Shown here: piece after piece, positions 1 to 63,895 of the stretch | How positions within the stretch are numbered: the stretch's first letter is position 1 | How the letters are laid out: each line of letters opens with the position of its first letter | Source: Euborellia annulipes | Taxonomy: Eukaryota > Arthropoda > Insecta > Dermaptera > Anisolabididae | Direction of reading: 5' to 3' | DNA: 64,000 nt | Assembly (NCBI GenBank): GCA_023213315.1 | Contig: JAKCPI010003258.1 | Coordinates: 49,725 to 113,724 of the forward strand | The notes under the pieces: generated by a model | The model's input: the letters and a program-made list of their open reading frames with translations, nothing else | Told to the model about the DNA's origin: nothing | Databases searched by the model: none | Position numbers and translations under genes: made by a program

Positions 1-1240
1 TCGGGTCCCAGCAAAAAAAAAATTTTGAATCGTCAAATCGGAAAAATCAACTTAGGAAATTTAATTGCGAAGTTCAATTTGAAATTATTTTTATTATTTG
101 TATAGCAAATATCAACTCTTTATGTATTTTTATTTTTATTTAATGTTTTTGAGATACGAAAATCCCCCCCCCCTCCTCACTTCCCTCTCGACAAGACAAG
201 AGATAAAAATTTTATTTCATTTCAATTTAATACAAACAATCCCATTTGGGGATTTAAGAATTGTTTCTTGTTGCCATAAAGTGAAATATTAAAATCAATA
301 GAAGCAGAAGAAATGACTTTCTATATTCTCAAATGAGGCATAAATTATATTCAGACTAATTTTTTAAATACTACAGGGCCGCCGAGAGTTAGCCTGGACA
401 TTAATCATATGCATTTGTATACAAATTGAGATTTTTTTGTTTTCAAAAATCTTAATTGAAAAATGCATTTATTTTTTAAATACTGCCGGGCCGCCGAGAG
501 TTAGCTTGGGCAAATAAGAAAATAAATATTTAAAATAAAAAATTCACGAAGTTTGTTTCTCTATATTCCAATAAATACCGAGATTTTTTCCTATCAATTC
601 ATTAACATTTTATTAGTATTAAATTAAGACATTTTTATTTCCAAGTTATTTTCGAGAGAGTGCAGCAACATGAGGATTTATTTTTTCCCCCTAAAGAAGC
701 CTCAATTTAATCTCACGATCTGGGAGAGCTCGTATATATTATTATTTCTAAGTGCATCCATCCGTTAATGCAGAGTTCAAAAAAAAAAAGCAAAGGAAAA
801 TCCTTTCTCGAATAGAAGAGACAAAGCGTAGCAATGCAGGTGATTAATCAATAATTGATTATATTAACTGCAATAAAAGATTCTAATCATCCAATAATAA
901 AGAAATCTGCATTTATTAGTTTAACCTTGTCTCTAAAAAAAAGTCGAAGTCAATAACTTCAAATCTTAATCACTCTTCCTCTCAGTTTTCTTTTGATAAT
1001 AATTGGAATTATATTTAAGAAATTTTTTGTAAAAAATTAAAATTTGTTTCATATCAATTGCAAAACGATTCCATATTATATATCTTGGATACCTCCCTCG
1101 CTTTTCTTCTTCTATCTAGGAGACAGGGAAAGAGACGCCCACTCTTTTCTTGTCTCTCTCCAAAACTCGGCCAAATTCTTTGTTAATTTTCTTGATTTAA
1201 AATCTTTGCGAAAAGTCCGAAATAAAATATGAATTGTATT
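1..1240. other. AT-rich non-coding stretch with a short direct repeat
   Basis: I see no gene here. A motif of about 35 bp, centred on GGGCCGCCGAGAGTTAGC, occurs twice in direct orientation at about 365-400 and 474-512, each copy preceded by TTTTTTAAATACT. The rest is low-complexity AT-rich sequence; the short reading frames at 98 and 1044 have no family resemblance. Confidence 0.6.
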
Positions 1241-1449
1241 GAAATAATAACGCTTGTTATGGATTCAGGGCAAAATTTAATTTCACTCTACAGTCGACGT
1301 TTCGGGAGTCTAAACGCTTCTCAGCATATCAGCCTTTTGCATTGTTCAGAGTCCTGAAGATGGGACTCGATCGACTCCCGAAACATCGACTGTATAGTGG
1401 AATTAAATTTTGCCCTGAATATACCTCCATAACAAGCGTTATTATTTCA
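1241..1449. mobile_element. Foldback element with hammerhead-like core
   Basis: The two ends are inverted repeats: ATAATAACGCTTGTTATGG on the left is matched by CCATAACAAGCGTTATTAT on the right, and the arms continue inward for about 65 bp with small differences. The right arm has CTGAAGA (1354-1360), a GGGA/TCCC hairpin and GAAACATC; the left arm has the complementary GACGTTTCGGGAGTC. It belongs to the GACGTTTCGG foldback family found throughout this window. Confidence 0.75.
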
Positions 1450-3225
1450 AAATCTACACTTTATTATGAATTGTATTACTTGGAATACTACATACTTTAA
1501 CGATCTCTTTCCTGATGATTCGATATGTTATTTTACTATTCACACAGGAACCTGAACTATGAGAGGCATCTGACGGGCCTTGTGAACCTTTCTAGAAATT
1601 ATAAGTGGAGTGTTAATGACTTCGAATTGGATTCTGATTATGTATTGAAATAAAGTGCTATGGCGGTTAACATATTTGAAGAATCGGTCATAATTTGGAA
1701 AGATTCATAGGATTTTCAAGAAACTGTCCGAGGATGACGATGTATCAATTGTTCATCATTTATAAGGAAATGAAATAAGACGAACCTGAGTCCCACACAA
1801 GGGCGGATACAAGGGGGGGGGGGGGGGGGGTTACCCCCCCCCCCCTATAAAAAAAAAATTTTTTTTTAAAAAAAAAATTTTTTATTTAAATTTTTATTTT
1901 AAAATTTATAAATTTAAATTTTGTGTTTTTTTTTTTTCAAAAATAATACAAAAAGCTTTTTAAATTATTAAAAAAAAAAAAAATAGTGTGGGGTGGGCCC
2001 CCCCCCCCCCCCCCCCCCCCCCACACCCCCCCCCCCCCCCCCCCCCCCCGGAAATAGCAAAGTCCTTTTAGCTATCAGTGTGACCACCTCCAAAAAACAA
2101 ACAAACTGTGTACCTTTGACTTTTATTGGATCATAAGTATGGCTTCTATATATTGAAAGAAATAATCTAAGGACTCTGGTCGAATCTAATTCAAGAGCCC
2201 ACCTCAAAATGCACACACACACATCTCCACGCCTAACAAAGTTTGGAACATTAATGATAATCCACATGCTAATAAAAGAGTCAACTAAAAATGCATTTGC
2301 AAACTCTATTAGTTAATCTCTAGCTAAGTCATAATTATCATTTACAGACGTGGATTTTATATTTAGAAGGAAAAATAATATAAATTTAATCTTTCCCTTA
2401 TTCAAAAAGGTCACTCGTTTAAAGTTCGAGTGAAATCCAGGAAATGTAAATATAAATGAGGTCTGGAATGGAATAAAATGGTTGCTCTGTCTGTCTGTCT
2501 GGTTCTTTGCGTGAGGAGATTTAATCGTATAAAACGAGGCTCTATTAAGAACGAGGAGAGCAAAAAAATAAAGTAGGCGAATCAATGACCTATTCAAATT
2601 AACTTTGAAGTTCTTTTGAAAAGAAAACAAACAAAAGAATTTATTTTTCTTTACCTTTCCTTATTTATTTATTTATAAAAAAAAAGGAAGTAATATCTCT
2701 TTTAAATTTTTAATAAAATAAAGCCTCTCATGATGAAATATGCATCTTGTCAAGATTATGAAAAAGGGGCGTTAATTTGGAATTTGATTTTTTTTTTGTT
2801 TGAATCATGAATGAAAAAGTTTTACCGGAAATAGGGCAGAAAAAAAAGGTTAGGGTGAGAAGCCATGAACCGGAAATATTAAAAGATTTGAATTAAAAAA
2901 AAGCCCGACAAAAATCTGGTCTTGTTTCTACAAAAGTGAACTAGATATTACTTCATTAGATAACTGAATTGAATTTAAAAATTATCTGGCCGAAAATTTT
3001 TTGAGTCAACTGAATAAGATAAAAAAAAAACGTTTGCAGCAACATTAGCGCTCTTCCTCAGAATTTTATTTATTTACATCCATTTCGACAGACTTTTGCC
3101 TATACTTCAATTCAAAAAATTATTATAAAATGGGGTTGAAATAGTTTTTAAAAATGATTTATAAAAAAATAAATAAATAAAATGACAAGTATCAGGTATT
3201 ATTATTATTATTTTTTTAAATTTTT
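1450..3225. other. Non-coding region with long homopolymer runs
   Basis: No gene seen. Positions 1815-2050 hold uninterrupted runs of G, C, A and T (for example poly-G at 1815, poly-C at 1836 and about 2000-2049), which produce a glycine-rich spurious frame on the minus strand. A short GTCT tetranucleotide run lies near 2487. Homopolymer lengths in such a place are likely to be uncertain in the assembly. Confidence 0.6.
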
Positions 3226-7639: not shown

Positions 7640-7925
7640 GGCAGCCAAGGCGAAAAATAAGTCCATTTTTTTGTCGACGTTTCGAGTGCCGATCGCACTC
7701 TTCATCAGGAGAAAAATGATGTCAGGTTAGTTGACATGGCAGTGTAGCAACGTTTTTAACAATTTATATTTTCTTGAAAAATTCTCTTTACTGTTCGCGA
7801 GGTCGCCATTCGACCGTTCGAAACGTTGCTACACTGCCATGTCAACTAACCTGACAACTTGACATCATTTTTGTCCTGATGAAGAGTGCGATCGGCACTC
7901 GAAACGTCTCGATAATTGTTGAAAA
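7640..7925. mobile_element. Foldback element with two opposed hammerhead-like motifs, copy 1
   Basis: Both arms carry GTTGCTACACTGCCATGTCA or its complement and, outside it, the module CTGATGA, GAGTGC/GCACTC hairpin, GAAACGTC. The plus-strand core is CTGATGA at 7876-7882; the minus-strand core is at 7702-7708. The left end has GCAGCC. A second, nested copy lies at 59085-59440. Arms have diverged slightly; the plus motif has lost its 3' stem I strand. Confidence 0.8.
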
Positions 7926-16017: not shown

Positions 16018-17084
16018 TAAAAAAATTAATTTTAAAATTAATAAAATCATATACAATATTGTATAATAATATATTTTTTTATAAAATATAAATAATAAAT
16101 ATAAATAAAATTAATAAAAAAAAAAAAAAAAAAAAAATATTCAACAAATGTGACCGACTTCGAAGTGGAGAGAATTGGCGCAAGTTTATAAATTTCTTTA
16201 AAGGAGAATTTGAAAGAAATATAAAAAATAAAATAAAATATAATAATTAAATAATATTTTCCAAAATAAATTATTCAATAACTTCCAAAATGCAAATACT
16301 GTTTGTTGATTGAGGAGTGAAGAGAAAGAAACTAGTCGATGTCCCTTGGGAGTGATGTGGCCCGAATAAAATAGCAATAGATCAAATATGCTCTTTTTTA
16401 AAGTGACACTAATTCCACTAACATATAGAAGTTTGAACATATTGTTGTTTCCAACAAGACAAAAGCTTTATGATCAGTTATTCGCCTTCAGATCATACAC
16501 TTTTTGGAATAAATCAGTTATAGGGTGTGGAAAAAGAAACCAATCAATTTTTATCCTCTAATAATTAATGCAAATGCAATTCCGAATTATTATATGGACA
16601 AACACTCGATTAAAGAAATCCAAACCAACTATATAATGTCACCAGATTTTTTCTAAATTCTTCCATCGTTTGGTGGACTTTATAGTCCGTAATAATACAA
16701 AAGAGATTTGGAGATATAATTCTCATCCACAAATATTTGCATTAAACGATGAAGGAAATGTTTTTTAAGCAAATTATATAATCTGGACTGAGTTCTTCAC
16801 GTATTATTCGAAAAATCTTCTCTAGTTGTGTTAGGGGAAAATCGGTTAGACGGAATTGTTTATTTATTGAAATAATGGTCTAGAATAGGATAATGAGATA
16901 AACAATTCTACTATCATTAATACAAACAATTCGGGTTGCTTATGCAAATAACTATTATAAATTTGTGTCACTTAAAAAAAAATAAATAAATCTAGCGTTA
17001 GTGTTAATACAGAAAGGAATGAATAAAGCATTAATGTTTCATTCACACTGACTAGTTTCTTTCTACACAGGATCCAAAGAAACT
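14527..17084. other. AT-rich non-coding stretch with MITE remnant
   Basis: No gene. Around 15640-15865 lies a MITE-like piece with poly-C, repeated TTCCGCAAAA blocks and an end ATTTCTATATACGCGCCTG that recurs near 57147 (AATTTCTATATGCGCCCCTG). A TAA/ATA-rich tract spans about 15900-16138, ending in poly-A. Confidence 0.5.
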
Positions 17085-17255
17085 TTGCAGCCAGGAGATT
17101 AAATAAAAAAGTTTTATTCGCCGACGTTTCGGTCATCACTCAGTGTGTGATCGTGTATAGCTTGCCCTGAGGAAGGTCGTGATTGGCGTCCGAAACGTTG
17201 GCGAATAAAAATTTTTTGTTTAATCTCCTGGCTGCAAAGTTTCTTCGAATCCTGA
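17085..17255. mobile_element. Foldback element with GCAGCCAGGAG ends
   Basis: The ends GCAGCCAGGAGATTAAA and TTTAATCTCCTGGCTGC are perfect inverted repeats. The right arm has CTGAGGA, a GG/CC-closed hairpin and GAAACGTTGG; the left arm carries GCCGACGTTTCGGTC. Here the cleavage triplet is GUU rather than GUC, which hammerheads tolerate poorly. It lies just beyond the probable 3' end of the GAS2-like gene. Confidence 0.75.
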
Positions 17256-17319
17256 TTAAATCTCAGTCATAAAACATTAAGTTTCTTTCATTATTATAAA
17301 AATCTTTAAAAAAAGCCTT

Positions 17320-23039: not shown

Positions 23040-23305
23040 AGCAGCCAGGTTATATAAAAAATTTCATATTTCTTAGCCGACGTTTCGGGTGCAAGTCGCA
23101 CCCATCCTCAGGGCAAGCAAAATTGTCAAAGTTTAGTACAGGTTAATCGGTACTTAAAAATTAATTTCATGTTTATACATGTATTCGTGCGTTCGTTGAT
23201 ATGTACAATAACAAAAAACGTTTTGCGATAAGTTTTTTGTTATTGTAATGTTACATACCAACGAACACACGAATACATGTAGAATCATGAAATTACACAC
23301 AACAA
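23040..23305. mobile_element. Foldback element with minus-strand hammerhead-like motif
   Basis: Starts with GCAGCCAGGTTATATAAA. The minus-strand motif (23074-23118) is followed by an inner inverted repeat: TTCGTGCGTTCGTTG near 23185 against CAACGAACACACGAA near 23260. The right outer arm seems replaced by the poly-G MITE that follows, so only one hammerhead-like motif remains. Confidence 0.65.
23074..23118 (-). ncRNA. Hammerhead-ribozyme-like motif
   Basis: On the minus strand: GCTTGCC, CTGAGGA (23105-23111), one T, hairpin GGGTGC/GCACCC with a perfect 6-bp stem, GAAAC GTC, then GGCTAAG. The outer strands GCTTGCC and GGCTAAG pair with one bulge, giving stem I. All catalytic-core positions (CUGANGA, GAAA, UH) are present apart from one extra base before stem II. 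Confidence 0.6.
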
Positions 23306-28261: not shown

Positions 28262-28403
28262 GAGCTCCATGAGGAAAGACACCCAGCATAAATAAAAACT
28301 TTTATATAATTTCATCGACGTTTCGGGAGCGCGTATTTATGCTGGCGAAACGTTGATGAAATAATATAAAAGTTTTTATTTATGCTGGCTGCCTTTCCTC
28401 ATT
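28262..28403. mobile_element. Foldback element, deleted centre
   Basis: AAGGAGCTCCATGAGG at left and CCTCATTGAGCTCCTT at right, with inner AGCATAAATAAAAACTTTTA inverted repeats, flank ATCGACGTTTCGGGAGCG and GGCGAAACGTTGAT. The hairpin portion of the hammerhead module has been lost. Confidence 0.75.
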
Positions 28404-29822
28404 GAGCTCCTTAGTCAATCATCACCACAGCCATTTCTATTCTTCATTGAACCGATAATATTTCTCTAAACATTTCCTATGGGAGAAATCGTAACTTTAG
28501 GACTTAATAACACAAAAAGTTATAAGAATTCCGGGACCCGAGTACTTTTCCTGGACTCTCGATAACGTCCTCTATATCTTATTACTGCAAAATTTCGTTT
28601 CAAAATTGGGCAAACAGAGCGTGACAGACGGACACTCCGATATTATAGTTATTTATTTATAATATAAGAGTTATTAAACATTTTATTAAATACAACACAC
28701 AAATATTGTTTTCAATATTTTTATAAAAAAATATTCTATCCAGAAATATACGTGATATGGCACCGAACTTTAAAATAAAATATGAAAGTTGAGTGTCAAA
28801 ATAAAACATTAAAATTGAGGAATTAAGAATGCCACATATGTTCACTAACCGATGAGATTAGGAAGCGTGTTGATTGGTGTGTTATGTGTAGGTTTTAAAA
28901 GAAAGATGAAAGTCAATCAATGAAAACGTTACAAACTATATTCAAATCGTATACTAAGTCTGGTAAGAAAAAAGTCCAAGTCGTCCAGCGAGAATCGACT
29001 CTAATCGACTTGAGGGAGTTTCAACTCGATTCTAAAAAGTCGATTATTTTCACTAAAAGATCTTTGATTAGAGTCAGAGTCGATTTTTCCATCCCTAAAA
29101 AAAAAACAACACTCAAAGGGCCAAACAAATTTTTGTTTTTGTATAAGAAATTAATAAAGAAGTAAAAATTTTCTATCTGGTTGGGTTTTTCCAACCATGC
29201 ATTGAAATTAGATCCGCTCTATAAAGTCAGTCAATCATTTGGAAGAGGAAAAATAATAATAATAATTAGAATTTTGTCATCAGTGATTTGGAATAATAAT
29301 AAGACAAGGAGAGACAGTTCGAGTGGCGTTGCCTTTGAGGATTCAATTAAACAACTCTAGAAGGACATTGAACCGGTCAATGGTAATCTAAGGTTCAATT
29401 GCTGGCTAAATTAAATAAAGACGAGGAGAGAGGGGGGGGGGCAATTATTTGATTGAGAGAGAACGAGTTGAAGAAAGAAGAAAGGCTTTCTTTTACTTGA
29501 CACGTGAGAGAGTCAAACAACACGGATTTGCGTATCTTGAAAATCAAAAATCTTTCTAAAACATTTTCTCTTTTTTTACAAAATTGAAACCCGGTAAACT
29601 CATTTTTTTTTTTTTCATTTAAGGACTTTTTACGGCATTGAAGGCCATTAGACCCCATCTCTATTTATTTCAATTGAATCGTTTATTTCAGAAACCACCT
29701 AAGTGCGCTTTTTTCAACTTTCGGAAAACTAAAGAAAACTGTTTTGCAGCTTAAGTATAGGTCTAGTCTCCTTCAAATATTTTTTTACCAAATCAAAAAC
29801 ATGCTATTGGGATAATCTTTTT

Positions 29823-36670: not shown

Positions 36671-37064
36671 AGAGGGACAAATTAATTCTTTGATTTATTT
36701 GATGAAAGATCAAGCTGAGAAAATGTTTGGACAACTTAGTTTAAATTTTAAAATCTGAGAAGAGAAGAGAATATGAAAATTATTTTATTTATAAAAAGGA
36801 GCGGACAATGTTTAATTAATTTGAGGCTTCAGAAGAAACCCGAGATTTATTATTCCTTTAGAGAGATGTTTTTGATGGAGGAACTTGCAAAAAGCTATTA
36901 GATTGGCTGAAATTGTCAGGAAACAAGCGCTAAAGGAAGATGCGAAAAAGTATCCGAATAATCATAAAACAACTTCATGTAAAAAATCAAAATACGATTT
37001 TTGCATTAATGCCAAATAAAATTGACAGGAAAAATTTGTATTTAGAAGGATAAATAAAAATGCC

Positions 37065-37450
37065 CTGCAGCTATTATTATTTCTTTGGTATCAAACCCAC
37101 AGCGACGTTTCTGTTGACTATGCGACCATCTTCATGGCTAGGGTTCAGTCAAATAACCGTCTTAAGTTTTTTGATATACATTTATTTACAATTTACGATC
37201 TATCACAATTACATTCAGAGCGAGTCAAATTTAATATGAATTTCATAATAATAATAATGAATATTTCATATTAAATTTGACTGGCGCTGAATGTAATTGT
37301 GATAGATCGTAAATTGTCTATCAAAGAACTCAAGAGGGTTACTATTGACTGAACCCTAGCCATGAAGATGGTCGCATAGTCGACCGAAACGTTGCTGTGG
37401 GTTTGATACCAATAAAGAAATAATTATAGCTGCTTGGCCTTTTTATTCAT
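37065..37450. mobile_element. Foldback element with variant hammerhead-like arms, copy 1
   Basis: Outer TATTTCTTTGGTATCAAACC and its complement; inner ATTTACAATTTACGATCTAT and ATAGATCGTAAATTG. The right arm has ATGAAGA, hairpin GGTCGC...GTCGACC, GAAACGTTG; the first core base is A rather than C. A relative with the same core lies at 49065-49465. Confidence 0.8.
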
Positions 37451-38274
37451 TCTTCTACATATTGATTCGGCTATTCACCTCGCTTACATATTTGTATTTA
37501 GGGGCAAAGGGTAGAACGATCTTAAAAGAATATACAAAAATAGCAGATGCACACATTCTTTGTTGGTGTCAACAATAATAATACATTTTCGGCAGAAAAA
37601 AAATATTTTTTATTGAATACCTATTAATTCTAAGGAAATAAGTAGTAATATTTATGAAATGCAAAGGTCGACGGTCTGTCTGTCTGTCCTTCCTTATAAA
37701 TAATCATCATGACTAATTTTGTTTTATTATAACGAGAAGGAATGTTTATCTAATCAAGTATTCCTGACTGACGGGACTGATGAGGTCATTGAACACGATT
37801 CAAAACAAATCTCTTTCATCTACGCTAACTACCTTGTACTTTATCAATTCATTTTTATTTAATCTTATCAATGCAATTAACTTTTTTTTCTTTTTTGCAA
37901 TATGTAGGTTAACTTTTTTTTTTTTGATGGCAAATTCAACTTATAAGAGATGGAAAATATTAATTTCGTCGGAAATATACGCCTAGAGACAGATGTACTG
38001 AAATATTTTTAGAATTTCAAGCTTTAATCTAACGGAAGTGACACTTTACTCAACGCTTTTTTTTTTAAACTCTCGTTTCCTTCTTCAGGTAAAATTCAGA
38101 TATAATCATAAAGTATAGAGATTTATATTCGAAACTTCATGGAGGGGAGATTCAATCTCTAGAGGTTAGACACTTTGAGATTCTTTCTGATTTATTCCCG
38201 AATAAGGCCTCAAAATGAGTACCTGGCCGAATATCTTATACAAATAAATGCAGTTTAATATAAAATGTCTTTGT

Positions 38275-41689: not shown

Positions 41690-42904
41690 GGAATAGGACC
41701 GAAGTTGTTATGCATGTTTTTCCCGCTAAGATGGCGTAGTGTGTCATAAAAAGTATGCCCAAAAATCAAGCAATTCAAAAATTTGCCAAGAGATGTCAGA
41801 ATGGTAGCTAATAATATTTAATGCATTTGGTTGATTTTCATTGATCTTTTAACAATAAATACTTTATAAATGTTATTGTATATTATGTATCTTTTATAAA
41901 AGCATAAAAATATATAAATATAGGCCAGATATACGCTATTAGGTGATCAGCTGTTAGACTAGCCTGCCATCTATTGCAAGAATGCTGAACTAATTTGACA
42001 GTTGATTTTTAAATAAATCATCTAAGCTTATTTTAAAAATTTCTTAATTAATATGTGATTAATAATAACAATAAATTCATTTTTAAATTTAAAAAAAATT
42101 AAAGATTATTGGGACAGATTGTTTTTTTGTATTTGCTTGATAACAAAAAAATTAATTACGATAATTTTTTAATAAGTCATTAAAAAAATTATAGCTCAAT
42201 GTCCCAATAATGTCTTATGAATTAAATTCATAAAAAAAAACCCATTGAAAAATTTCTTATAATAGTCTAGTTTTTTTTTTTAAGTTCGTTAAGACGTCGC
42301 TCCTGAACCCTTTAAACTATCTAAATATGAGATTAAAATTTTGAAAAATATTAACCAGTGGACAAAGATGGGAGTCAGAGAGATGAAGGGAAGGAGGGGG
42401 GAGGGGGCAATAATTGATAAAGCTAGCAATTCATAAATCGGTGAATAATTAAATATACAAAGAGGAGCTGATTAGTTTATGGCAGGTTTTATTAGTAGCC
42501 TACTCTCGGGTCCATTTTCTCACTTAATCTAATATTCATAATCTCTCTCTCTCTCTCTCTCTCACTCGTGTCTGCTGAGAGAATTTTAGTATGAAAGGAA
42601 ATTAAAGTCAAGAAGATAAAAGAAATCAAGAAAGACTAGATTCACAACCATAGATGGATTTTTTTTTTATTTAATTTATTAATAATATTGCAAATCTTGA
42701 CACCGTTAACATAAAAGCCATTAGTGTGAATGAAAACGCTATTGAATATTGAATGCGATTAAAGAGAACTTGCAAAAATAAAATTACGGCATATTCCCTC
42801 ATGGCCTACAAAATTATGGTGAGTCTTGAACGGAGATACATACCATGTACCGATATTTAGGACAAGATTATTATTAAAATGATAGAGAGGAAGAGAGGAT
42901 GTCA

Positions 42905-43225
42905 GCCAAAAGGAGAGCCTCTATCGAATAAAAATCTCCATTCAGAAGACGTTTCGGTTTTAATTAAATAAATCCATCATCAGTTCTTAAGAGATTATTG
43001 ACAATCTCAAGTTGTACACAGATAGAGTTGTTATTTATAAACATATACAAAAATTTTATAAAAATTCAATATTTGCACATAAGATGACGTATGCCCATCA
43101 GTTAATACGGCCAAGTCTCAAATGTATATAAAACATTTTTTTCATGATGATGGATTTATTTAATTAAGCCCGAAACGTCTTCTGAATGGAGATTTTTTCA
43201 CCTTTTGGCTGACATCCTCTCTTCC
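42905..43225. mobile_element. Foldback element with hammerhead-like arms
   Basis: GAGAGGATGTCAGCCAAAAG and CTTTTGGCTGACATCCTCTC are exact inverse ends. Next inward, CTCCATTCAGAAGACGTTTC and GAAACGTCTTCTGAATGGAG. The minus core CTGATGA (42977-42983) has a GG/CC stem and GAAACGTC; the plus copy has lost the core C. Confidence 0.85.
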
Positions 43226-43279
43226 CGTCTATCGTTCTAATCGTTGAACAGCCACTTCTCTTAACAACAAGATTATTAT

Positions 43280-43720
43280 TATTTGAAATTCCGGATTCCC
43301 ATTTATTTACCCGAGGTGTTTTCGTGCACGAAGACACACACCTCACCTCTCGCCGTAGCCATCTACCGGCACTCCGTGAAGTTACATCATTTCTTATCTC
43401 TAAATACTCCTCCTAGCTAACGAGCTAATCATTATTTCTGGTTCTTTTTATCCAACCTCACACACTTTTACGATATCCGTTATTGATTTATATACATATT
43501 TGGGGTCCATGCATTCTTATTTAAGCCAATCCAACCTCTTCTATGTTAGGGAGAATGTCCTTGTTTGAGGAGGGACTCCCTCAGCACTCCTTTCGGAGAA
43601 TTTAGAGATTTCGTTCCCTGGAGAGAGCCTTCTTTACACGGAATGTCACAGCAACTCACTCTTCTGAGCCCTATTGTTATTGTGGCGGAATCCAATATTC
43701 GAATCAAGGGCGTACTTGAG
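43280..43720 (-). repeat. Retroposon body, second copy
   Basis: Shares CATTTATTTACCCGAG-type start, CACGAAGACACA, GCCATCTACCGGCAC and GTGAAGTTACAT with 25980-26500. It is interrupted at about 43450-43530 by a fragment of SINE family A in inverse orientation. Confidence 0.65.
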
Positions 43721-48895: not shown

Positions 48896-49064
48896 TAATA
48901 GCGAAACCTTCAAATGAAATTTTAATATATACTACTTCTGAAGCAGAGGTGCATTCCCCGGTGACGGGGATCCTGTAGGAAGGGAGTTTTTAAGGGATTC
49001 CCTTTTTTAAGGTCTTTTTTCGGCATCTAGGGCCAATTAGAACCAGTCTCTATTTATAGTAGAA

Positions 49065-49465
49065 AATAAAAGTTCGAGCAGCTATGTTAATTTCTTTTTT
49101 AGAACCCCAGCGACGTTTCGGTCGACTATGCGACCATCTTCATGGCTAGAGTTCAGTCAACAGAAAAACCTCTTAAGTTCTTTGACGGACATTTCATAAA
49201 ATACATTACGATCTATCATATATAATGCATTCAGCGCCAAAGTCAATATGCTGAATGCATTATATATGATAGATCGTAATGTATTTTATGAAATGTCTGT
49301 CAAAGAACTTAAGAGGTTTTTCTGTTGACTGAACTCTAGCCATGAAGATGGTCGCATGAGTCGACCGAAACGTCGCTGTGGGTTCTCAAATAAAGAAATT
49401 ATCATAGCTGCTCGACCTTTATTTTCTACTACATATTGATTCAGCTATTCGCCTCGCTAACAGTC
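49065..49465. mobile_element. Foldback element with variant hammerhead-like arms, copy 2
   Basis: Centre AATGCATTATATATGATAGA palindrome; arms AAGAACTTAAGAGGTTTTTC and complement; outer AGCAGCTATG and CATAGCTGCT. Core ATGAAGA, hairpin GGTCGC/GTCGACC, GAAACGTCGC. The arms match almost perfectly, so it is young. Confidence 0.85.
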
Positions 49466-49602
49466 TCTATTTATTTCGCAATTCTCAATTGGAAGATTAC
49501 TCCTTAATAGATAGCAGGTTCTTAAAGCAATATTTCAATAAAAAACATAAATATTTTTTTATTTTCAGGATTTTTATTATTTGATGACTGTGTGTGCACA
49601 TA

Positions 49603-50889
49603 CCAGGGGTGTGCCTATGAAACCGCCTTTACTTTGAAAAATCCTGGCGGCCAGTTTTGGTACTATACAGTCTAGTTATTGAGTTTGTTTGTTTGGTTTA
49701 TGTCTGTTCTAAGTTTCGAACTCAAAAAAATTCCAATTTCATACTCCCAACATTTTTTTTTCACCACGTCAAACATGTCAACCTTTGTTCCTCAACAAAG
49801 TGATTTGCGGACGGCGTTGATTTTTTGCTATCATTTGAAAAAAACGGCCGCGGAGTCTCATCGAATGCTTGTAGAAGCTTTTGGCGACTATGCTCTTGGT
49901 GAAACACAGTGCAAAGAATGGTTCAAAAAATTCAAGAGGGGAGATTTTGACATTAAGAACGAAGCACGTGGCCGACCGCCCAAAAAGTTTGATGACACCG
50001 ATTTGCAAGAATTGTTGAATGAAGATTCAACTCAAACACAACAACAATTGGCAGAACAGTTAAACGTGACTCGGGAAACTATTTCCAAGCGTCTGAAAGC
50101 TATGGGGAAGATCCAGAAGATCGGGAAATGGGTTCCACATGAACTGAACGAAAGGCAGCAAGAGAACCGAAAAACCACTTGTGAGATGCTGCTCGCCAGA
50201 TACAAAAGAAAGTCATTTCTTCATCGAATTGTTACTGGAGATGAAAAATGGATCTTTTTTGAAAATCCTAAGCGTCGAGCATCATGGGTATCTCCAGGTG
50301 AGCCATCAACATCGACTCCAAGACCAAATCGATATGGACGAAAGACAATGCTTTGTGTTTGGTGGGATCAGAAGGGAATTATCTATTACGAACTCCTGAA
50401 ACCTGGCGAAACTGTCAATACGGAACGTTATCAACAGCAAATGGTGAAATTGAACCAGGCTATACGCCAAAGAAGACCAGAATATCAAAAAAGGCAGCAC
50501 AAAGTCATCTTGTTGCACGACAACGCTCCGTCACACGCTGCAAAACGAACCAAAGAAACCATTGAAACGTTTGGGTGGGAAATTCTCACACATGCGGCTT
50601 ATTCCCCAGACTTGGCCCCAACGGACTATCACTTGTTTTCATCTTTGGGTCACGCTTTGAGGGAGCAGCAGTTCACAGATTACGAAAATGTTGCCAAATG
50701 GCTCGATGAATGGTTTGCCTCGAAAGAAGACGAGTTTTTTTGGAGAGGGATTCATAAGCTCCCTGAAAGATGGGAGAATTGTATTGCTAACGAAGGAAAT
50801 TACTTTGAATAAAATATCTTTTTTCACTTTTATAAAATATGTGTTTATGTGCGCACCTCTAAAGGTCGGTTTCATAGGCACACCCCTGG
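49603..50889 (+). mobile_element. Mariner element, mauritiana type, apparently intact
   Basis: 1287 bp with terminal inverted repeats CCAGGGGTGTGCCTATGAAA (left, continuing CCGCCTTTA) and the same sequence inverse at the right (one base different in length). TA target duplications are at 49601-49602 and 50890-50891. The length is close to the canonical 1.28-1.3 kb. It encodes one uninterrupted 345-aa transposase. Confidence 0.95.
49775..50812 (+). CDS. Mariner transposase (DD34D), full length
   Basis: Cut-and-paste transposase acting on the flanking inverted repeats. From the methionine at 49775 it has 345 residues, the usual length for Mos1-like proteins; 32 upstream in-frame codons are probably leader. 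An N-terminal helix-turn-helix region covers about residues 1-112, the WVPHEL linker motif is at 120-124, and YSPDLAP at 276-282. The catalytic aspartates are D156 (GDEKWIF), D249 (HDNAPSH) and D284 (APTDYH), with 34 residues between the last two. There are no frameshifts or stops. The sequence is strikingly similar to Drosophila Mos1 as I remember it, especially in RYKRKSFLHRIVTGDEKWIF and KPGETVNT. This intactness, alongside a fully decayed mariner at 12275, suggests recent arrival. Confidence 0.96.
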   Translation: MSTFVPQQSDLRTALIFCYHLKKTAAESHRMLVEAFGDYALGETQCKEWFKKFKRGDFDIKNEARGRPPKKFDDTDLQELLNEDSTQTQQQLAEQLNVTRETISKRLKAMGKIQKIGKWVPHELNERQQENRKTTCEMLLARYKRKSFLHRIVTGDEKWIFFENPKRRASWVSPGEPSTSTPRPNRYGRKTMLCVWWDQKGIIYYELLKPGETVNTERYQQQMVKLNQAIRQRRPEYQKRQHKVILLHDNAPSHAAKRTKETIETFGWEILTHAAYSPDLAPTDYHLFSSLGHALREQQFTDYENVAKWLDEWFASKEDEFFWRGIHKLPERWENCIANEGNYFE

Positions 50890-52567: not shown

Positions 52568-52605
52568 GGTCAATAATAGAGACTGTTTAGAACTAAAATT
52601 CTTTT

Positions 52606-53067
52606 ACACCAGAAAGCAGGAGGTTTACTTGGCGTGTAAGTTGCAGATGGAGATGCAAAATAAATAAATAAATAAAATTTATTTTCAGGATTTTTTATTA
52701 GTGACGACCAACCGCAGTGAATTGGTTTCGGTTAACAAAAGTAACCATCATCAGGTCTGAAATTTACAAAATTAATTGAAAAAATGCGGAAGGGCATCCA
52801 AAAACATCAGTCAATAAAAGATATTCAAAATAATAGTAGTAATATTTTGAATATCTTTTATTGACTGATGTTTTGGATGTCCTTCCGCATTTTTTCAATT
52901 AATTTTGTAAATTTCAGACCTGATGATGGTTACTTTTGTTAACCGAAACCAATTCACTGCGGTTGGTCGTCACTAATAAAAATCCTGAAAATAAATTTTA
53001 TTTATTTATTTATTTTGCATCTCCATCTGCAACTTACACGCCAAGTAAACCTCCTGCTTTCTGGTGT
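52606..53067. mobile_element. Nearly perfect 462-bp palindromic foldback
   Basis: ACACCAGAAAGCAGGAGG at the left end is matched by CCTCCTGCTTTCTGGTGT at the right. The arms of about 220 bp are almost identical in inverse, with a loop of about 15 bp near 52833. Each arm has CTGATGA (plus copy 52920-52926), a GGTTA/TAACC hairpin and GAAAC, but GUC is replaced (CCAA). The ends share ATAAAAATCCTGAAAATAAA with the foldback at 49510. Confidence 0.9.
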
Positions 53068-53089
53068 TGATAATTTCTTGGCCTGTTTC

Positions 53090-53290
53090 GTTTGTTAAAA
53101 TTCTTTTATTTACATCGTGTCGACGTTTTGGGGCCAGCACAAGGGTTGTAAAAAAAAAAATATTTATTTCCTTGTATGTAAATTTTAATTTCACAAAAGG
53201 AAAGAAATAAAAAGTTTTTTAAATACCCTTGTTCTGAAGATAGGTCACGTTTAATCCACGAAACGTCCAAACGGTTTAAATAAAAGACAA
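53090..53290. mobile_element. Foldback element, degraded arms
   Basis: GTCGACGTTTTGGGGCC at left, CTGAAGATAGGTCACG and ACGAAACGTCC at right, with TTTTATTTACA and TAAATAAAAGAC outside. Confidence 0.5.
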
Positions 53291-55226: not shown

Positions 55227-55794
55227 CACTGGCTTCAGGTTTCTTATCACAAACTCTAATCATTTGTTACTTGGCAGCATTTCTTCACCTTTCTATTAAT
55301 TCATTTAATCACCAATTTGAGTTCGAAAGAAAAGCAATAAATTGTTTCATATCAAATATCTTATCATTGATTAAAAAAAAAAAAGAATTTTTATTTAAAC
55401 TATGACACAGCAAGAAGAAGGGGGGGGGGGGAGAATTTAATTGAATTAAAATGAACCTTATATAAGATAATAATCTCTATTGATTTAGTATGCAGGCAGG
55501 CGCGCATATGGCTTGTTTGTTTTAGAGGGGGATCACAAAACGAGCAAGGAGCCTGTTCCAGATGATAATGGATGTGCCTATGGTCAAGCTTTCTCATAAC
55601 ACCTCACCTCCGCTTGTCCAATTAACCTCAAAAGAGCCTCTGTCTTTTAGAGTCGGCTAGAGATTAACGATCTAATTATTTGATATTTGTCGAATTTTAT
55701 CGCTTTCCGTAATTATTATTAAATTTATAGAAATTTTTTTTTTTTATTATTTTAAAGTGAAGTGGCTGTTGTATGTTAAGTAAAGATGTGCTTC
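55227..55794. other. Non-coding stretch
   Basis: Poly-G at about 55421-55431; otherwise no recognisable feature. Confidence 0.45.
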
Positions 55795-55851
55795 TTGTAG
55801 TAAGGAAGAAAGAAAAGAGCGATTGCAGCTAATTTTATTTCGTTTATTAAT

Positions 55852-55904
55852 CGCTTCAAGCCGACGTTTCGGCCAGATATACGACCATCATCAGGCCTGA
55901 AGCG
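55852..55904 (-). ncRNA. Hammerhead-ribozyme-like motif
   Basis: Minus strand: CGCTTCAGGC, CTGATGA (55888-55894), T, hairpin GGTC ... GGCC-side, GAAACGTC, GGCTTGAAGCG. Stem I pairs over most of its length with one mismatch or bulge. Confidence 0.6.
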
Positions 55905-56035
55905 TGTCAACAAAATTCCTCAAAATGTCGAATGGCACAATTGAGTAAAATATTTTTTGCCATTTTATAAGGACCAACAGGCTATGCGAGTCAAGGTTAG
56001 ATTGTGCCATTCGATATTTTGAGAAATTTGTTGAC

Positions 56036-56089
56036 ACGCTTCAGCCCTGATGATGGTCGTATATCTGACCGAAACGTCGGCTGAAGCGT
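56036..56089 (+). ncRNA. Hammerhead-ribozyme-like motif, perfect 11-bp stem I
   Basis: ACGCTTCAGCC (56036-56046), CTGATGA (56047-56053), T, GGTC (56055-56058), loop, GACC (56067-56070), GAAA (56071-56074), CGTC (56075-56078), GGCTGAAGCGT (56079-56089). The first and last blocks are exact reverse complements. GUC precedes stem I as in a hammerhead cleavage site, and ACGU at the top is self-complementary, allowing stem III only in a dimer. Confidence 0.7.
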
Positions 56090-56179
56090 TAATAAACGAA
56101 ATAAAATTAGCTGCAATCGCTCTTTTCTTTCTTCCTTACTACAAGATCTACTCAGCTATCCGCCTCACTTTAAAATGTG

Positions 56180-56460
56180 CTTCTTTTAGTCGACGTTTCG
56201 GATATTTCGTTTTCGCTTTATTTCATACACTTGGCGACGTTTCGGCCTTTATCAGGACAATGTGCTGTTTGCCTCGAGCTTAGAGGGGCTCTTGGCAACT
56301 CCTCACGTAGGGCCTATTGTTGGTCTGATTGAACCAGAAGTCATGAAATCTGATGAATGTTCGCACCACACAATAGCCTCTAAGATCGAGGCAAACAGCA
56401 TATTGTCCTGATGAAGGCCGGAATTTCGGCCGAAACGTCGACAATTGTATGAAATAAAGC
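56180..56460. mobile_element. Foldback with one complete hammerhead-like motif
   Basis: ACAATGTGCTGTTTGCCTCG at left and CGAGGCAAACAGCATATTGT at right are inverse. The right arm holds the 56402 motif; in the left arm (minus) stem II is deleted, CTGATAA running straight into GGCC and GAAAC. Confidence 0.8.
56402..56445 (+). ncRNA. Hammerhead-ribozyme-like motif
   Basis: ATTGTC, CTGATGA (56408-56414), A, GGCCG (56416-56420), loop, CGGCC (56427-56431), GAAA, CGTC (56436-56439), GACAAT. Stem I (6 bp) and stem II (5 bp) are perfect. Confidence 0.7.
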
Positions 56461-57235
56461 AGAAGAAAAGAAATATATTTTTTCTTTATTGCTTTCAGCT
56501 GCTTTGATCTCCTAACTACTCATTATATTATCTGTAACAGTCAAAAGTATCCATTTTTAGAGTTGTGACAGAGAGATTTCTCTCAAAGCTTAGAGACATT
56601 AGAGCAAGCGGCTTATTTAGTTGCGTCCAACACATAAATCACATAATAAAACCTTACACATAATAAATTTTCATCATTTAATTATAATATTTTTATTTAA
56701 TTATCATTAACATCATATACTTTTAGATACCCATTAAAAGGCACCTGCTCTCTCTAAACTTTATGGCTTCTCTCACCGATAGGGTGCACTACTAGAGTGA
56801 ATTCTTTTGGCTGTTCACAGATCAGGGGGCCGATGCCCCCCTCCCCCGAAATTTCCTAAATGCATATACATATATAGGAATATAGAGCCAATAATGGGTC
56901 TCGCCCCCCCCCGAAATGTTTGCGCGGCCCCGTAGCGCGAAAATGTAGGCTCCACAAACGGCACATGAAGAAAATTTTGGTTCCACGGATGGTCGCGGGT
57001 GGCAAAAATTTAGCGTCTCTAAAAAAAAAAGGTAAAATATTTTTTCGGACGGGAAAAAATTTTGGTCCCGCGAAAAAAGATTTTTCGCAGAAAATTTTTG
57101 AGATCAGGCCCCCCCCCCCCCCGAAAAAAATTTCTATATGCGCCCCTGTTACAGATAATACATTGAGCCACAGCTTCTGTAATAAATATTTTATATCTCA
57201 CAAGATAATATCTACGTGTATTTCATAACAACCTT
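56461..57235. repeat. Non-coding with homopolymer-rich MITE-like segment
   Basis: 56820-57150 has CCCCCC runs, repeated GGCCCCGTAGCGCGAAAAT-like blocks and end ATTTCTATATGCGCCCCTG, as at 15640-15865. It is a probable hAT-type MITE; I could not confirm a target duplication. Confidence 0.45.
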
Positions 57236-57300
57236 CGGCCCCGAAGAAGGACGCGATAGGCGTCCGAAACATCGACCAATCAAAGAAATTAAAAAAATAA
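57236..57300 (+). ncRNA. Degraded hammerhead-like motif
   Basis: CCGAAGA, hairpin GGACGC/GCGTCC (perfect 6 bp), GAAACATC, GACC. The second core base is changed (U to C), so it is likely inactive. No matching inverse arm nearby. Confidence 0.4.
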
Positions 57301-58400
57301 ATTTTTTATTCTCCATGTTTTATTTATTGTATTTTCATCACAAGACAAATTAAGAGTCAATAGTTCACTTTCTAACCAGAGCGGTAAAAATATTGGCCAA
57401 CAATAAAAAACTAGCTTCGCAATAGACTTTGCATCCAGCCAGGGGCATTTCGACCCCACTGGTCTAAATTAAATGACAAATCACTTCACTAAGTAAAATT
57501 TCAACACAATAAAAGTTTTAACGTGACCGTTGAATGGTATCAACAGTGGAGAAAGCCTACTTTTTTTAGGCAGTGTTGAATGAAAAACACAATTTCAATG
57601 AAAAGGCTCTTCTCCATCAGAAGTTTAACTAAAATATAAAACAAATGTAAATGTTGATATTTTAACTAATTTTATAAAAAAGTTTAATCTCTCGAGTCAT
57701 CTTGATAAAAATCAAAACGTTGTTTTATGCCTCCAGTGTCTTCGAAATATAATGTCAAAAAATAAAACTCAATTGTGTTTTTCATTCAAACTTGAATAGC
57801 CGTTCTACATTTGAATTTGCCATCTCGGCGTCACTCTACTGATATCTACAGTTTGTAACCAACTATTAAGGTTGCCTTGTGTTCAATAAAGGTGGAAAAA
57901 CGCTAAACGCTTTCAAGTAACCACAGAGAGTGAGAGATCAAGGGTCAATGGTGAAGCCTCGGGTACATAAAAGAACAAAAAAGTTTTTTCTGACTGCTAA
58001 CTCAAAACAACAACAAAAGTTACTGTAATACGTTGACAACGCCAGTTTATTTTAATGGGTGCATCATTCACCCTCTATCTTATTTCTAGAAATAAACACT
58101 CAAGAAGAGAAGCGAAGAGGCAACTTAAAATAAACAAGGTGAATAGAGTAGAGGAAGAATCAACCTAAAGAAAGGATTAAAAAAAAAAGAACTAATCACC
58201 TTTTCTTTCAAGAATAAAAATAACAAAAATCTGGTGCGCACAGCACACAACTTTCGATTACCGGAGGTAAGAGAATGAATCATTCTAATCGAGAGATTTG
58301 CTTTAACATCATCTTGTATCGAAACAAAGCATACTTGCTATATATAATTATACATTGTAATCTATATGTTTAAAATATCACAACAAATGACACCTTATTG
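57301..58400. other. Non-coding stretch
   Basis: No gene. Contains ACTAGCTTCGCAATAGACTT near 57410 (possible Helitron 3' end), a half hairpin at about 58229-58275 (ATCTGGTGCGCACAGCACAC), and a short frame starting at 57948 discussed under rejected items. Confidence 0.45.
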
Positions 58401-58414
58401 TTATAATTGACACA

Positions 58415-58464
58415 TGCTCAGTCCTGAGGAAGGGGGCGATTAGCACCCGAAACGTCGACGAGCA
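58415..58464 (+). ncRNA. Hammerhead-ribozyme-like motif, solitary
   Basis: TGCTCAGTC, CTGAGGA (58424-58430), A, GGG/CCC-closed hairpin, GAAA (58449-58452), CGTC (58453-58456), GACGAGCA. Stem I forms with one bulged A. No inverse arm nearby; GGGCAGCCTACC at about 58496 marks the family end. Confidence 0.6.
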
Positions 58465-59084
58465 GATTGAAATAAAATTGTTTTATTTCTAATCCGGGCA
58501 GCCTACCCAGCATCAATAATATACACAATCTCCAGGAGGGATGATTCGTTTGGAAAATTGGTTTTCCGGGACGTACAGTGGGCGCCACAAATGCCTGATC
58601 TGCTCGAGAGTCGAGTCTTGAGCTTAGTCAACCAAACCAATATTTTTTAAAATAAATAAATCATCTTTTTTTAATGCAACTGAAGAAGACAAGCTACTTT
58701 TAAGATAACACTTCATAAAGCTAAGCATTTTGAATGGCTAAGCCAGTGATTTCCAACCTGGGGGCGATCGCCATCAAGTGGGCGATTTGGTTATCAGGGG
58801 GGCAATAAATAAGTGGGGGGGGGGGGCGAAGAGTATTCAAAGAGGGAAAAATTAGTAGAGTTTACTAAAATTAAAAAAAAAAAACAAAAATCAAAGAGAA
58901 AAATCTCTTATTTAAAAGATGGCCAGTATAAAAGAGGACAAAATAATAAAAAAGTCTGAAGATAATTCCATCTAGAATCGAAACGTCACTTTTGTTTTCA
59001 TTAAATTAAGATTGACCGTTGAAAAAAGATCCATTTTTGTTATTTTCTTCATAAAAATAAAATTATTATAATATGAGGATGTGG

Positions 59085-59440
59085 CATAAGGTGAAAAATA
59101 AAATAATTTTTTTTGTCGACGTTTCGAGTGCCGATCGCACTCTTCATCAGGACAAAAATGATGTCAAATTGTCGGGTTTGTTGACATGACAGTGTAGCAA
59201 CGTTTTTGCCAATTTATATTTACTTGAAAACTCTCTTTACTGTTCCGAGAACCAGTAAAGGGTTTTCAAGTAAATATAAAAAATAATTGGTAAAAACGTT
59301 GCTACACTGCCATGTCAACAAACCCGACAATTTGACATCATTTTTGTCCTGATGAAGAGTGCGATCGGCACTCGAAAACGTGGACAAAAAAAATAAAAAA
59401 ATTTTTATTTTATTTTTCACCTTGGCTGCCCTTATGCCAC
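59085..59440. mobile_element. Foldback with two hammerhead-like motifs, copy 2
   Basis: Same family as 7640-7925. Outer AAGGTGAAAAATAAAAT and complement; inner ACAGTGTAGCAACGTTTTT and complement. The minus motif is intact, the plus motif has an extra A and GUG in place of GUC. Confidence 0.9.
59107..59159 (-). ncRNA. Hammerhead-ribozyme-like motif
   Basis: Minus strand: ATTTTTGTC (59159-59151), CTGATGA (59150-59144), A, GAGTGC/GCACTC hairpin (6 bp), GAAA (59125-59122), CGTC (59121-59118), GACAAAAAAAT. Stem I ATTTTTGTC / GACAAAAAT is perfect. Confidence 0.7.
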
Positions 59441-63744: not shown

Positions 63745-63895
63745 ACGCAGCTAATTTTATTTCATTTTATTATTAAAACCAGGACCGACGTTTCGGTCAC
63801 ATATAGGACCATCTCCAGATCTCCAGGTTCAGGTTAAAATGTGACCGAAACGTCGGCCCTGCTTTTAATGATAAAATGAAATAAAAATTTTTTCT
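63745..63895. mobile_element. Foldback element with GCAGCTAATTTTATTTC end
   Basis: Left ATTTTATTTCATTTTATTAT and AGGACCGACGTTTCGGTCAC; right GTGACCGAAACGTCGGCCCT and TAATGATAAAATGAAATAAA. The left arm keeps CTGGAGA, GGTCC/GTGACC hairpin; the right arm lacks the core. It shares its outer end with 55826. Confidence 0.75.

What the first reader, a model, noticed from the sequence alone, without database searches (positions are those of the whole stretch)
55826..59440. A family of foldback elements carries hammerhead-ribozyme-like modules
Seen: about fifteen places have CTGANGA, a hairpin, GAAAC and usually GTC in this order (CTGANGA at 1354, 4912, 7876, 50950, 52920, 56047, 56408, 58424, 59349 on plus; 7702, 23105, 42977, 55888, 59144 on minus). 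The hairpin sequence differs between copies but still pairs (GAGTGC/GCACTC, GGTC/GACC, GGCCG/CGGCC, GGGTGC/GCACCC, GGTTA/TAACC, GGACGC/GCGTCC), and outer flanks pair with each other in the best copies. Known: type I hammerheads with short stem III occur in Penelope-like elements and retrozymes. Inference: these foldbacks are, or derive from, ribozyme-bearing retroelements and make self-cleaving or circular RNA.
Basis: partly seen in the sequence, partly recalled or inferred. Interest (0 to 1): 0.88.

Follow-up and report, generated by a model that had tools for sequence, protein, structure and literature searches.

The report
Penelope-retroelement foldbacks carrying minimal hammerhead ribozymes
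This stretch of what looks like an animal genome holds short back-to-back retroelement insertions, most carrying a stripped-down version of a known self-cutting RNA; the kind is known, and the insertion scars suggest how such inverted pairs are made.

Summary
All 14 listed CTGANGA sites are present. CTGANGA-N17..19-GAAACGTC occurs 13 times, against 0 in 200 shuffles. Stems I and II covary (score 0.551 against 0.227 shuffled, 17 copies).

These are not textbook hammerheads. No Rfam hammerhead matches up to E 10. GAAAC runs straight into GTC, so a monomer has no stem III, and one unpaired A or T follows CUGANGA. Missing helix III, with possible dimer cleavage, is how reviews describe Penelope-like (PLE) hammerheads.

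The surroundings fit PLEs. In 8 of 17 inverted repeats examined, a 10-15 bp target-site duplication adjoins the left arm and a 16-38 nt tail lies only on the right. In 6 of 7 measured, the tail ends 105-122 nt past core A9, near where the Anolis PLE starts reverse transcription (111-118; PMC11167929).

I read them as head-to-head inverted pLTRs left by PLE insertion, perhaps with reverse transcription started at both target ends. RNA circles are not supported: same-family copies on one strand lie 12 kb or more apart. Catalysis is untested, modelled folds do not favour the hammerhead, and no PLE protein was found in 63 ORFs.

The parts
55786..55796 (.). left target-site duplication ATGTGCTTCTT of the 56.0-kb foldback
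   Evidence: exact 11-bp repeat of 56175-56185, adjoining the left arm with 0 unaligned bases
55797..56174 (+). 56.0-kb foldback (378 nt): left arm without tail, right arm ending at 56142, 32-nt tail 56143-56174
55863..55894 (-). hammerhead-like module, left arm of the 56.0-kb foldback
   Evidence: 41.4 bits
56047..56078 (+). hammerhead-like module, right arm; 11-bp stem I, stem II, predicted cut after GTC at 56078
   Evidence: 53.7 bits
56175..56185 (.). right target-site duplication ATGTGCTTCTT
56202..56476 (+). 56.3-kb foldback; full module 56408-56439 (+), module with shortened stem II at 56226-56265 (-); no duplication found
56408..56439 (+). hammerhead-like module, right arm of the 56.3-kb foldback (6-bp stem I, 6-bp stem II)
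   Evidence: 52.7 bits
57241..57273 (+). hammerhead-like module, damaged core (CCGAAGA); no good inverted partner within 1.2 kb
   Evidence: 51.3 bits
58424..58456 (+). hammerhead-like module; best inverted repeat nearby does not contain it
   Evidence: 51.2 bits
58956..58987 (+). hammerhead-like module, 6-bp stem I, imperfect stem II
   Evidence: 44.7 bits
59064..59457 (+). 59.2-kb foldback: module 59118-59150 (-) intact, module from 59349 (+) damaged (GAAAAC, GTG); no duplication found
1228..1477 (+). 1.3-kb foldback with 13-bp duplication TATGAATTGTATT, 16-nt tail; full module 1354-1387 (+), cut triplet ATC
7676..7908 (+). 7.8-kb foldback; modules 7676-7708 (-) and 7876-7908 (+); right-arm homology stops at the predicted cut
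17054..17289 (+). 17.1-kb foldback with 10-bp duplication AGTTTCTTTC, 25-nt tail; module 17167-17199 (+), cut triplet GTT
23079..23111 (-). hammerhead-like module (GGGTGC/GCACCC stem II); lies beside, not inside, the palindrome at 23162-23295
   Evidence: 55.5 bits
28241..28468 (+). 28.3-kb foldback with 12-bp duplication AATATTTCTCTA, 38-nt tail; only 3' halves of the module (GAAACGTC/T) in its arms
37034..37501 (+). 37.2-kb foldback with 12-bp duplication ATTTGTATTTAG, 35-nt tail; modules 37135 (-) and 37362 (+), core ATGAAGA
42862..43281 (+). 43.0-kb foldback with 15-bp duplication ACAAGATTATTATTA, 30-nt tail; modules 42948-42983 (-) and 43144 (+, core ATGATGA)
49044..49474 (+). 49.2-kb foldback with 14-bp duplication CAGTCTCTATTTAT, 30-nt tail; modules 49143 (-) and 49342 (+), core ATGAAGA
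52594..53108 (+). 52.8-kb foldback with 13-bp duplication TAAAATTCTTTTA, 29-nt tail; arms nearly identical; modules 52754 (-) and 52920 (+), no GTC

Best explanation
The foldbacks are short insertions derived from Penelope-like retroelements (PLEs): two inverted, head-to-head copies of the pLTR region with no protein gene between them. Most carry the PLE kind of minimal type I hammerhead: stems I and II, no stem III in a monomer, and a palindromic ACGU that could form a 4-bp stem III only between two copies. How they arise (inferred): the PLE endonuclease opens AT-rich DNA with a 10-15 bp stagger, and reverse transcription of pLTR RNA starts at the two neighbouring sites known for PLEs, one at each DNA end. 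The two cDNAs run toward and often through the hammerhead and are joined head to head; the difference between the start sites leaves the 16-38 nt tail on one side only. What the ribozyme would do (inferred): two pLTR copies on one RNA, or two RNAs, pair and cut after GTC, trimming PLE transcripts. Inside a foldback's own transcript the module is often buried by the opposite arm. Shown here: anatomy, covariation, duplications, tails and spacing. Not shown: catalysis, the protein, and how the two arms were primed. The confidence given is for PLE origin; for the both-ends start I would say about 0.55.
For: Motif excess: 13 against 0 of 200 shuffles. Covariation: score 0.551 against 0.227 +/- 0.034 shuffled (0 of 500) and at most 0.222 when slid; 10 of 11 pairs changed on both sides (23 of 500 shuffles reach that count), 43 such cells (0 of 500). 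Duplications of 10-15 bp at the arm ends in 8 of 17 inverted repeats, left arm starting 0-4 bases after them; tails of 16, 25, 38, 35, 30, 30, 29 and 32 nt, right side only. None of 7 comparison inverted repeats has a duplication placed at its arm ends (coordinates). Published PLE traits: inverted pLTRs head to head, palindromic junctions, 8-10 bp duplications (absent in some copies), optional 31-bp tail (PMC3846280, passages); a 30-40 bp tail lying between two reverse-transcription start sites, a start region 111-118 bp into the ORF, both DNA strands cut and extended, AT-rich target (PMC11167929, passages and part 1 of the main text). Here the tail ends 105, 107, 122, 117, 113, 170 and 122 nt from A9 and the tail-less end lies at 89, 82, 87, 87, 83, 141 and 90: 2 of 7 tail ends are inside the Anolis range, 4 more within 6 nt of it. 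PLE hammerheads lack helix III and may cleave as dimers (PMC6155905, PMC7761336; passages).
Against: No reverse transcriptase or GIY-YIG domain in the 63 stop-to-stop ORFs of 80 aa or more. 9 of 17 inverted repeats show no duplication. Nothing here was compared with a named PLE sequence, because none could be fetched. Energies do not favour the hammerhead: the best monomer fold is a hairpin pairing GAUG with CGUC, 2.2-4.4 kcal/mol better in three of the best copies, and the double-hammerhead dimer that I wrote scores worse than two monomers in 14 of 14 copies folded (for example 56047: -52.3 against -58.8; such models leave out tertiary contacts and my stem choice was crude). The unpaired base after A9 departs from the standard core; an unpaired A there is known in the plus hammerhead of chrysanthemum chlorotic mottle viroid (PMC3705267, passages). 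The 52.8-kb ends (141, 170 nt) are off the pattern; 3 of 8 tails (16, 25, 29 nt) are shorter than the published 30-40. In vitro, top and bottom strands of the Anolis element showed no difference in start site, which the one-sided tail would need.
Confidence: 0.8

Rival explanations
1. Retrozymes: small non-autonomous elements whose hammerheads cut tandem transcripts into units that are circularised.
For: Type I geometry of stems I and II, low GC and longer duplications are shared with metazoan retrozymes, and amphibian ones have a weak helix III and work better as dimers (PMC7229834, passages).
Against: Same-family copies on one strand lie 12 kb or more apart. The paired copies are inverted, not direct. 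Helix III is absent, and no Rfam hammerhead matches.
Confidence: 0.05
2. The conserved module is only a hairpin (a DNA or RNA binding site, or a transposon end); its resemblance to a hammerhead is incidental.
For: In the 14 copies folded the monomer energy minimum is never the two-stem hammerhead that I wrote, and uses GAUG/CGUC in the best ones; the dimer hammerhead is not favoured either.
Against: The GANG/CGTC helix has 0 of 4 pairs with a change on both sides, and its position-7 pair is broken in 10 of 17 copies. Over 20 copies position 7 is A10 T6 G4 C0 (counted), although C would pair perfectly; around anchored hairpins the other letters are those of the hammerhead core.
Confidence: 0.12
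3. Foldback or MITE-like DNA transposon ends moved by a transposase, with hammerheads picked up secondarily.
For: Terminal inverted repeats with direct duplications; the window holds an open mariner transposase frame.
Against: The ends are asymmetric (tail on one side in 8 of 8) and duplications vary from 10 to 15 bp; cut-and-paste elements have symmetric ends and a fixed duplication length (recalled).
Confidence: 0.05
4. Within a PLE origin: snap-back (self-primed) copying of one cDNA, as proposed for rotifer Penelope, rather than reverse transcription started at both target ends. (The odds given are conditional on PLE origin.)
For: Arms of 52.8 kb differ at 1 of 216 aligned positions; palindromic junctions were read as self-priming in PMC3846280; the Anolis enzyme used the same start sites on both strands in vitro.
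Against: A snap-back strand should copy the tail too, yet the left arm stops short of it in 8 of 8, next to the duplication, and at 82-90 nt from A9 in 6 of 7.
Confidence: 0.3

Closest known systems
Minimal hammerheads of Penelope-like elements (Cervera and De la Pena 2014; Lunse, Weinberg and Breaker 2017; neither held, known here from citations and reviews)
   Same: Type I order, stems I and II, helix III missing, many dispersed copies, action as dimers proposed
   Different: One unpaired A or T after CUGANGA in the 20 copies; I could not check whether published PLE copies share it
Poseidon PAc of Anolis carolinensis (PMC11167929)
   Same: Hammerhead at the pLTR-ORF junction with its cut 26 bp after the start codon (26-27 nt from A9 through GTC in copies with 17-18 nt spacing; that the Anolis start codon begins at A9 is my inference), tail and start-site spacing, AT-rich target
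   Different: Here no ORF follows and the pLTRs are paired head to head in 204-489 nt elements
Penelope families of Adineta vaga (PMC3846280)
   Same: Inverted head-to-head pLTRs, optional 31-bp tail, direct duplications, palindromes at the junction
   Different: In the passages read, intact ones flank an 830-842 aa ORF and duplications are 8-10 bp or absent; duplications here are 10-15 bp; the paper does not mention ribozymes (0 occurrences)
Metazoan retrozymes (PMC7229834)
   Same: Type I hammerheads, AT-rich small elements
   Different: Direct tandem units with canonical hammerheads (loop-loop contacts, helix III weak only in amphibians); not seen here
Chrysanthemum chlorotic mottle viroid plus hammerhead (PMC3705267)
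   Same: Unpaired A after A9
   Different: A viroid motif; similarity of position only

Membership tests
Hammerhead ribozyme (type I) | CUGANGA and GAAA core with an NUH cut triplet | tested here: met
   13 exact CTGANGA-N17..19-GAAACGTC matches; several other copies have damaged cores
Hammerhead ribozyme (type I) | Stems I and II, adjoining the core, kept by compensatory change | tested here: met
   stem II begins one base late
Hammerhead ribozyme (type I) | Stem III | tested here: not met
   GAAAC is directly followed by GTC, so a monomer has no loop; only an ACGU self-complementary dimer stem is possible (13 of 14 copies folded have it), and that dimer is not favoured by energy
Hammerhead ribozyme (type I) | Match to an Rfam hammerhead model | tested here: not met
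   0 hits at gathering, no hammerhead among 59 hits up to E 10
Hammerhead ribozyme (type I) | Self-cleavage | not testable with these tools
   needs in vitro transcription
PLE-type minimal hammerhead | Helix III lacking; dispersed copies | tested here: met
   (description)
Penelope-like element | ORF with telomerase-like reverse transcriptase and GIY-YIG endonuclease | tested here: not met
   63 of 63 stop-to-stop ORFs of 80 aa or more scanned, none; shorter or broken remnants not searched; hence PLE-derived, not autonomous PLEs
Penelope-like element | Inverted, head-to-head pLTRs with target-site duplication | tested here: met
   8 of 17 inverted repeats
Penelope-like element | Tail of about 30-40 bp on one side, reverse-transcription start about 111-118 nt into the ORF | tested here: met
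   loosely: tail on one side in 8 of 8, 30-40 nt long in 5 of 8; tail end at 111-118 nt from A9 in 2 of 7, 105-122 in 6 of 7
Penelope-like element | Sequence homology to a named PLE pLTR | not tested
   no named PLE sequence was fetched; own-genome search did not complete
Retrozyme | Direct tandem repeats with hammerheads, circular RNA | tested here: not met
   no tandem same-family pairs among 30 copies compared; RNA not testable

The most novel reading that the evidence does not exclude
Each foldback records one PLE integration in which a two-RNA, two-protein complex started reverse transcription at both ends of a staggered break, at two different fixed start sites. The palindromic hammerhead core would be both the joint that holds the two RNAs together and the place where they cut. 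The 7.8-kb copy, whose right-arm homology stops at the predicted cut, would be a cDNA jump between cleaved RNAs, that is, a trace of cleavage in the animal.
Probability: 0.12. Interest if true: 0.75.

Novelty: new member of a known kind. Interest (0 to 1): 0.42.

Why it matters
The role of the hammerhead in Penelope-like elements is called a mystery in a review (PMC7761336, passages), and little is known of how PLEs integrate (PMC11167929). A set of small insertions with intact duplications, a tail on one side and ends at fairly fixed distances from the ribozyme bears on both questions: it suggests that both ends of a PLE insertion can be reverse-transcription starts. It can be tested in any PLE-rich genome by computer alone. 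It also corrects the reading of these foldbacks as sources of circular RNA.

Tried and rejected
Rfam scan for hammerheads: nothing; the miRNA-family hits there, several on inverted repeats, are all below their cut-offs and are taken as chance.

My rescan saw 89 sites, 20 with a stem II: 15 in the standard register (at least 4 bp asked; 7 of them one repeated sequence) and 5 one base late (at least 3 bp asked). Three stricter patterns gave 1 stretch in all, whose site looks like ordinary phage-contig sequence without the module's stem II and was taken as chance.

Search for a PLE protein: none in 63 of 63 ORFs of 80 aa or more. A protein search with the GAS2 exon gave 67 metagenome proteins, nearly all without a name, and was not followed.

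Idea that the two arms already differed at insertion (two source RNAs): arm divergence 0.5-9.4% against intact duplications gives a product of 0.0046, but intact duplications are what I selected for, so I do not claim it.

Junction at the cut site in 7.8 kb: one case only, left open.

Rows dropped: alignment A1 holds 16 of the 20 copies plus 59150, which is kin of 7708; the four left out (4912, 35066, 53234, 63574) are weak pairers and count against the reading; they are included. In one search, 14 copies were folded, chosen by me for intact or nearly intact cores.

Duplication test: 15 inverted repeats (7 fit) and 2 (1 fits). One of the 17 (23.2 kb) had hand-set bounds and its module lies beside the palindrome; 3.4 kb holds one partial module. 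In the mismatched-pair control 21 of 210 reach 10 bp and 10 of 210 reach 11 bp, two of these at over 100 bp, which I take to be overlapping windows. A 21-bp hit at 50.9 kb is a self-overlap and was discarded. Of 7 comparison repeats, 3 reach 10 bp or more (10, 10 and 17), all three well inside the arms and not at their ends.
Full report
OBSERVATION. The 14 CTGANGA sites listed are all in the sequence. GAAAC follows in 13 of 14 and GTC in 10 of 14. The spacing is tight: 18 of the 20 CTGANGA...GAAAC hits have 17-19 bases between, where 200 dinucleotide shuffles give a mean of 0.055; 13 end in GTC, and no shuffle gave one. Starting instead from GAAACGTC (27 sites in 64 kb), 11 have a hairpin directly before them; of those 11, 7 show exact CTGANGA, 3 show it with one mismatch and 1 does not, and the base just before the hairpin is A or T in all 11.

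STRUCTURE. In 20 copies chosen one per family, stem II pairs 76.5 of 100 when started one base after CTGANGA, and 36-38 in the neighbouring registers. Stem I pairs 58 of 100 exactly at the core and GTC, and 19.5-40.5 when slid. On an alignment of 17 copies the covariation score is 0.551 against 0.227 for shuffles (0 of 500 as high) and at most 0.222 for slides; 43 cells change on both sides (0 of 500); 10 of 11 pairs have such a change, a count that 23 of 500 shuffles also reach. Two of these 17 rows are kin (7708, 59150), and four weak copies were left out of this alignment but not. A model from it finds 29 matches at E < 0.01 in the window, the 17 included.

DEPARTURES FROM THE STANDARD HAMMERHEAD. 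No Rfam hammerhead is hit up to E 10. GAAAC and GTC abut, so a monomer has no stem III; ACGU is self-complementary and could form a 4-bp stem between two copies. A base is inserted after A9; among viral-contig sites with the same pattern and a stem, 15 of 20 have the standard register and 5 have this one. An unpaired A at this place is published for one viroid hammerhead (PMC3705267, passages). Energies speak against easy folding: in three of the best copies the best monomer fold is a plain hairpin that pairs GAUG with CGUC (56047: -29.4 against -25.6 kcal/mol; 56408: -19.9 against -15.5; 59150: -19.7 against -17.5), and the double-hammerhead dimer scores worse than two monomers in 14 of 14 copies. 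But that hairpin is not what is conserved: its helix shows no two-sided change and its position-7 pair is broken in 10 of 17. Position 7 is A in 10, T in 6, G in 4 and C in 0 of 20 copies (counted).

SURROUNDINGS. 17 inverted repeats holding or (23.2 kb) adjoining a whole or partial module were examined. Where both arms hold a module the two point outward. Downstream of GTC, by eye, many families share an AT-rich stretch, often AATAAA-like, and then GCTGC. In 8 of 17 an exact 10-15 bp direct repeat flanks the element; the left arm begins 0-4 bases after it, and the right arm is followed by a 16-38 nt tail before its copy. The mismatched-pair control reaches 10 bp in 21 of 210 and 11 bp in 10 of 210; of 7 comparison inverted repeats 3 reach 10 bp, none at the arm ends. 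The duplications are 20% GC (20 of 100 bases, counted); the window is 33.5%. Tails of the 37.2, 49.2 and 56.0 kb elements share CTATYCRCCTCRCT. Counted from core A9, the tail ends at 105, 107, 122, 117, 113, 170 and 122 nt and the tail-less end lies at 89, 82, 87, 87, 83, 141 and 90 (1.3, 17.1, 37.2, 43.0, 49.2, 52.8, 56.0 kb; 28.3 kb has no full module).

WHAT IT IS. These traits together are those published for Penelope-like elements: inverted head-to-head pLTRs, palindromic junctions, a 31-bp optional tail and 8-10 bp duplications (absent in some) in rotifer Penelope (PMC3846280, passages); in the Anolis element a hammerhead at the start of the ORF with its cut 26 bp on, two reverse-transcription starts bounding a 30-40 bp tail, a start region 111-118 bp into the ORF, AT-rich targets, and both DNA strands cut and extended (PMC11167929, passages and part 1 of the main text). 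PLE hammerheads are described as lacking helix III, with cleavage as dimers possible (PMC6155905, PMC7761336, passages). The original PLE hammerhead papers are not held. No PLE protein was found in 63 of 63 ORFs of 80 aa or more, so the elements are called PLE-derived and non-autonomous.

MECHANISM. Inferred: staggered cutting, then reverse transcription of pLTR RNA from both ends at the two known start sites, then head-to-head joining. This accounts for the duplications, the one-sided tail and the near-fixed distance of both ends from the ribozyme. Snap-back copying, proposed in PMC3846280, should carry the tail into the second arm, which is not seen in 8 of 8; but near-identical arms (1 of 216 differ at 52.8 kb) fit it, and in vitro the Anolis start sites did not differ between strands, so it stays open. 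The ribozyme's part is not shown. In vitro the Anolis ribozyme needed its protein to cut, insertion did not need cutting, and RNA reads did not begin or end at the cut (PMC11167929). In the transcript of a whole foldback, 32-33 of 33 core bases pair with the other arm in 5 of 8 elements (0, 8 and 14 in the other three), so these foldbacks look like poor sources of cleaved RNA.

Hammerhead-like modules and retroelement descent: supported. Compensatory change: found within the window, so that part of the stated refutation did not occur; the genome-wide alignment and the cleavage test could not be made. Circular RNA: no support; same-family copies on one strand lie 12 kb or more apart.

LIMITS. 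The source genome could not be searched, no named PLE DNA was compared, and cleavage was not tested. Whether solo inverted pLTR pairs or the extra base are already in print I cannot say: the searches cover only open-licence papers, and I read passages and one part of a main text, not whole papers.

Noticed in passing
7876-7908 and 7909-7988: The right arm of the 7.8-kb foldback matches its family (84 of 88 to the 59150 copy) up to and including GTC, where the alignment ends: a homology break at the predicted cleavage site. Single case.
   Followed up: partly
1228-1477, 17054-17289, 28241-28468, 37034-37501, 42862-43281, 49044-49474, 52594-53108, 55786-56185: The tail lies on the right (plus) side in 8 of 8 duplication-bearing foldbacks; the GAS2-domain exons lie on the minus strand, so the tailed copy is antisense to that gene if the gene spans them.
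   Followed up: partly
17554-17820 and 20022-20369, minus strand: Two exons that together cover a GAS2 domain (profile 38-69 and 3-41; PDB matches of the first to GAS2 and MACF1): a GAS2 or spectraplakin-like animal gene.
   Followed up: partly
49676-50809, plus strand: Open 378-codon mariner-type transposase frame (HTH_48 and Transposase_1).
   Followed up: no
7989-8150; kin at 26.7, 28.1, 30.9, 40.7, 53.7, 54.2 kb: An unnamed interspersed repeat family, 80-87% identical between these copies.
   Followed up: no
L065: A viral contig has a hammerhead-like site with a 7-bp stem II starting one base after CTGAGGA (extra C), the same register as the window copies.
   Followed up: no
55860-56080 and 63785-63857: Rfam miRNA family MIR6136 matches these inverted repeats below its cut-off (53.1 and 28.8 bits, cut-off 99). 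Chance or a shared foldback origin not examined.
   Followed up: no
1286-1388, 17123-17199, 28317-28355, 63777-63854: In the 1.3, 17.1 and 63.8 kb foldbacks one arm holds only the 3' half of the module (from about the stem II 3' strand on), and in 28.3 kb both do, so the inverted junction falls inside the hammerhead (by eye).
   Followed up: partly
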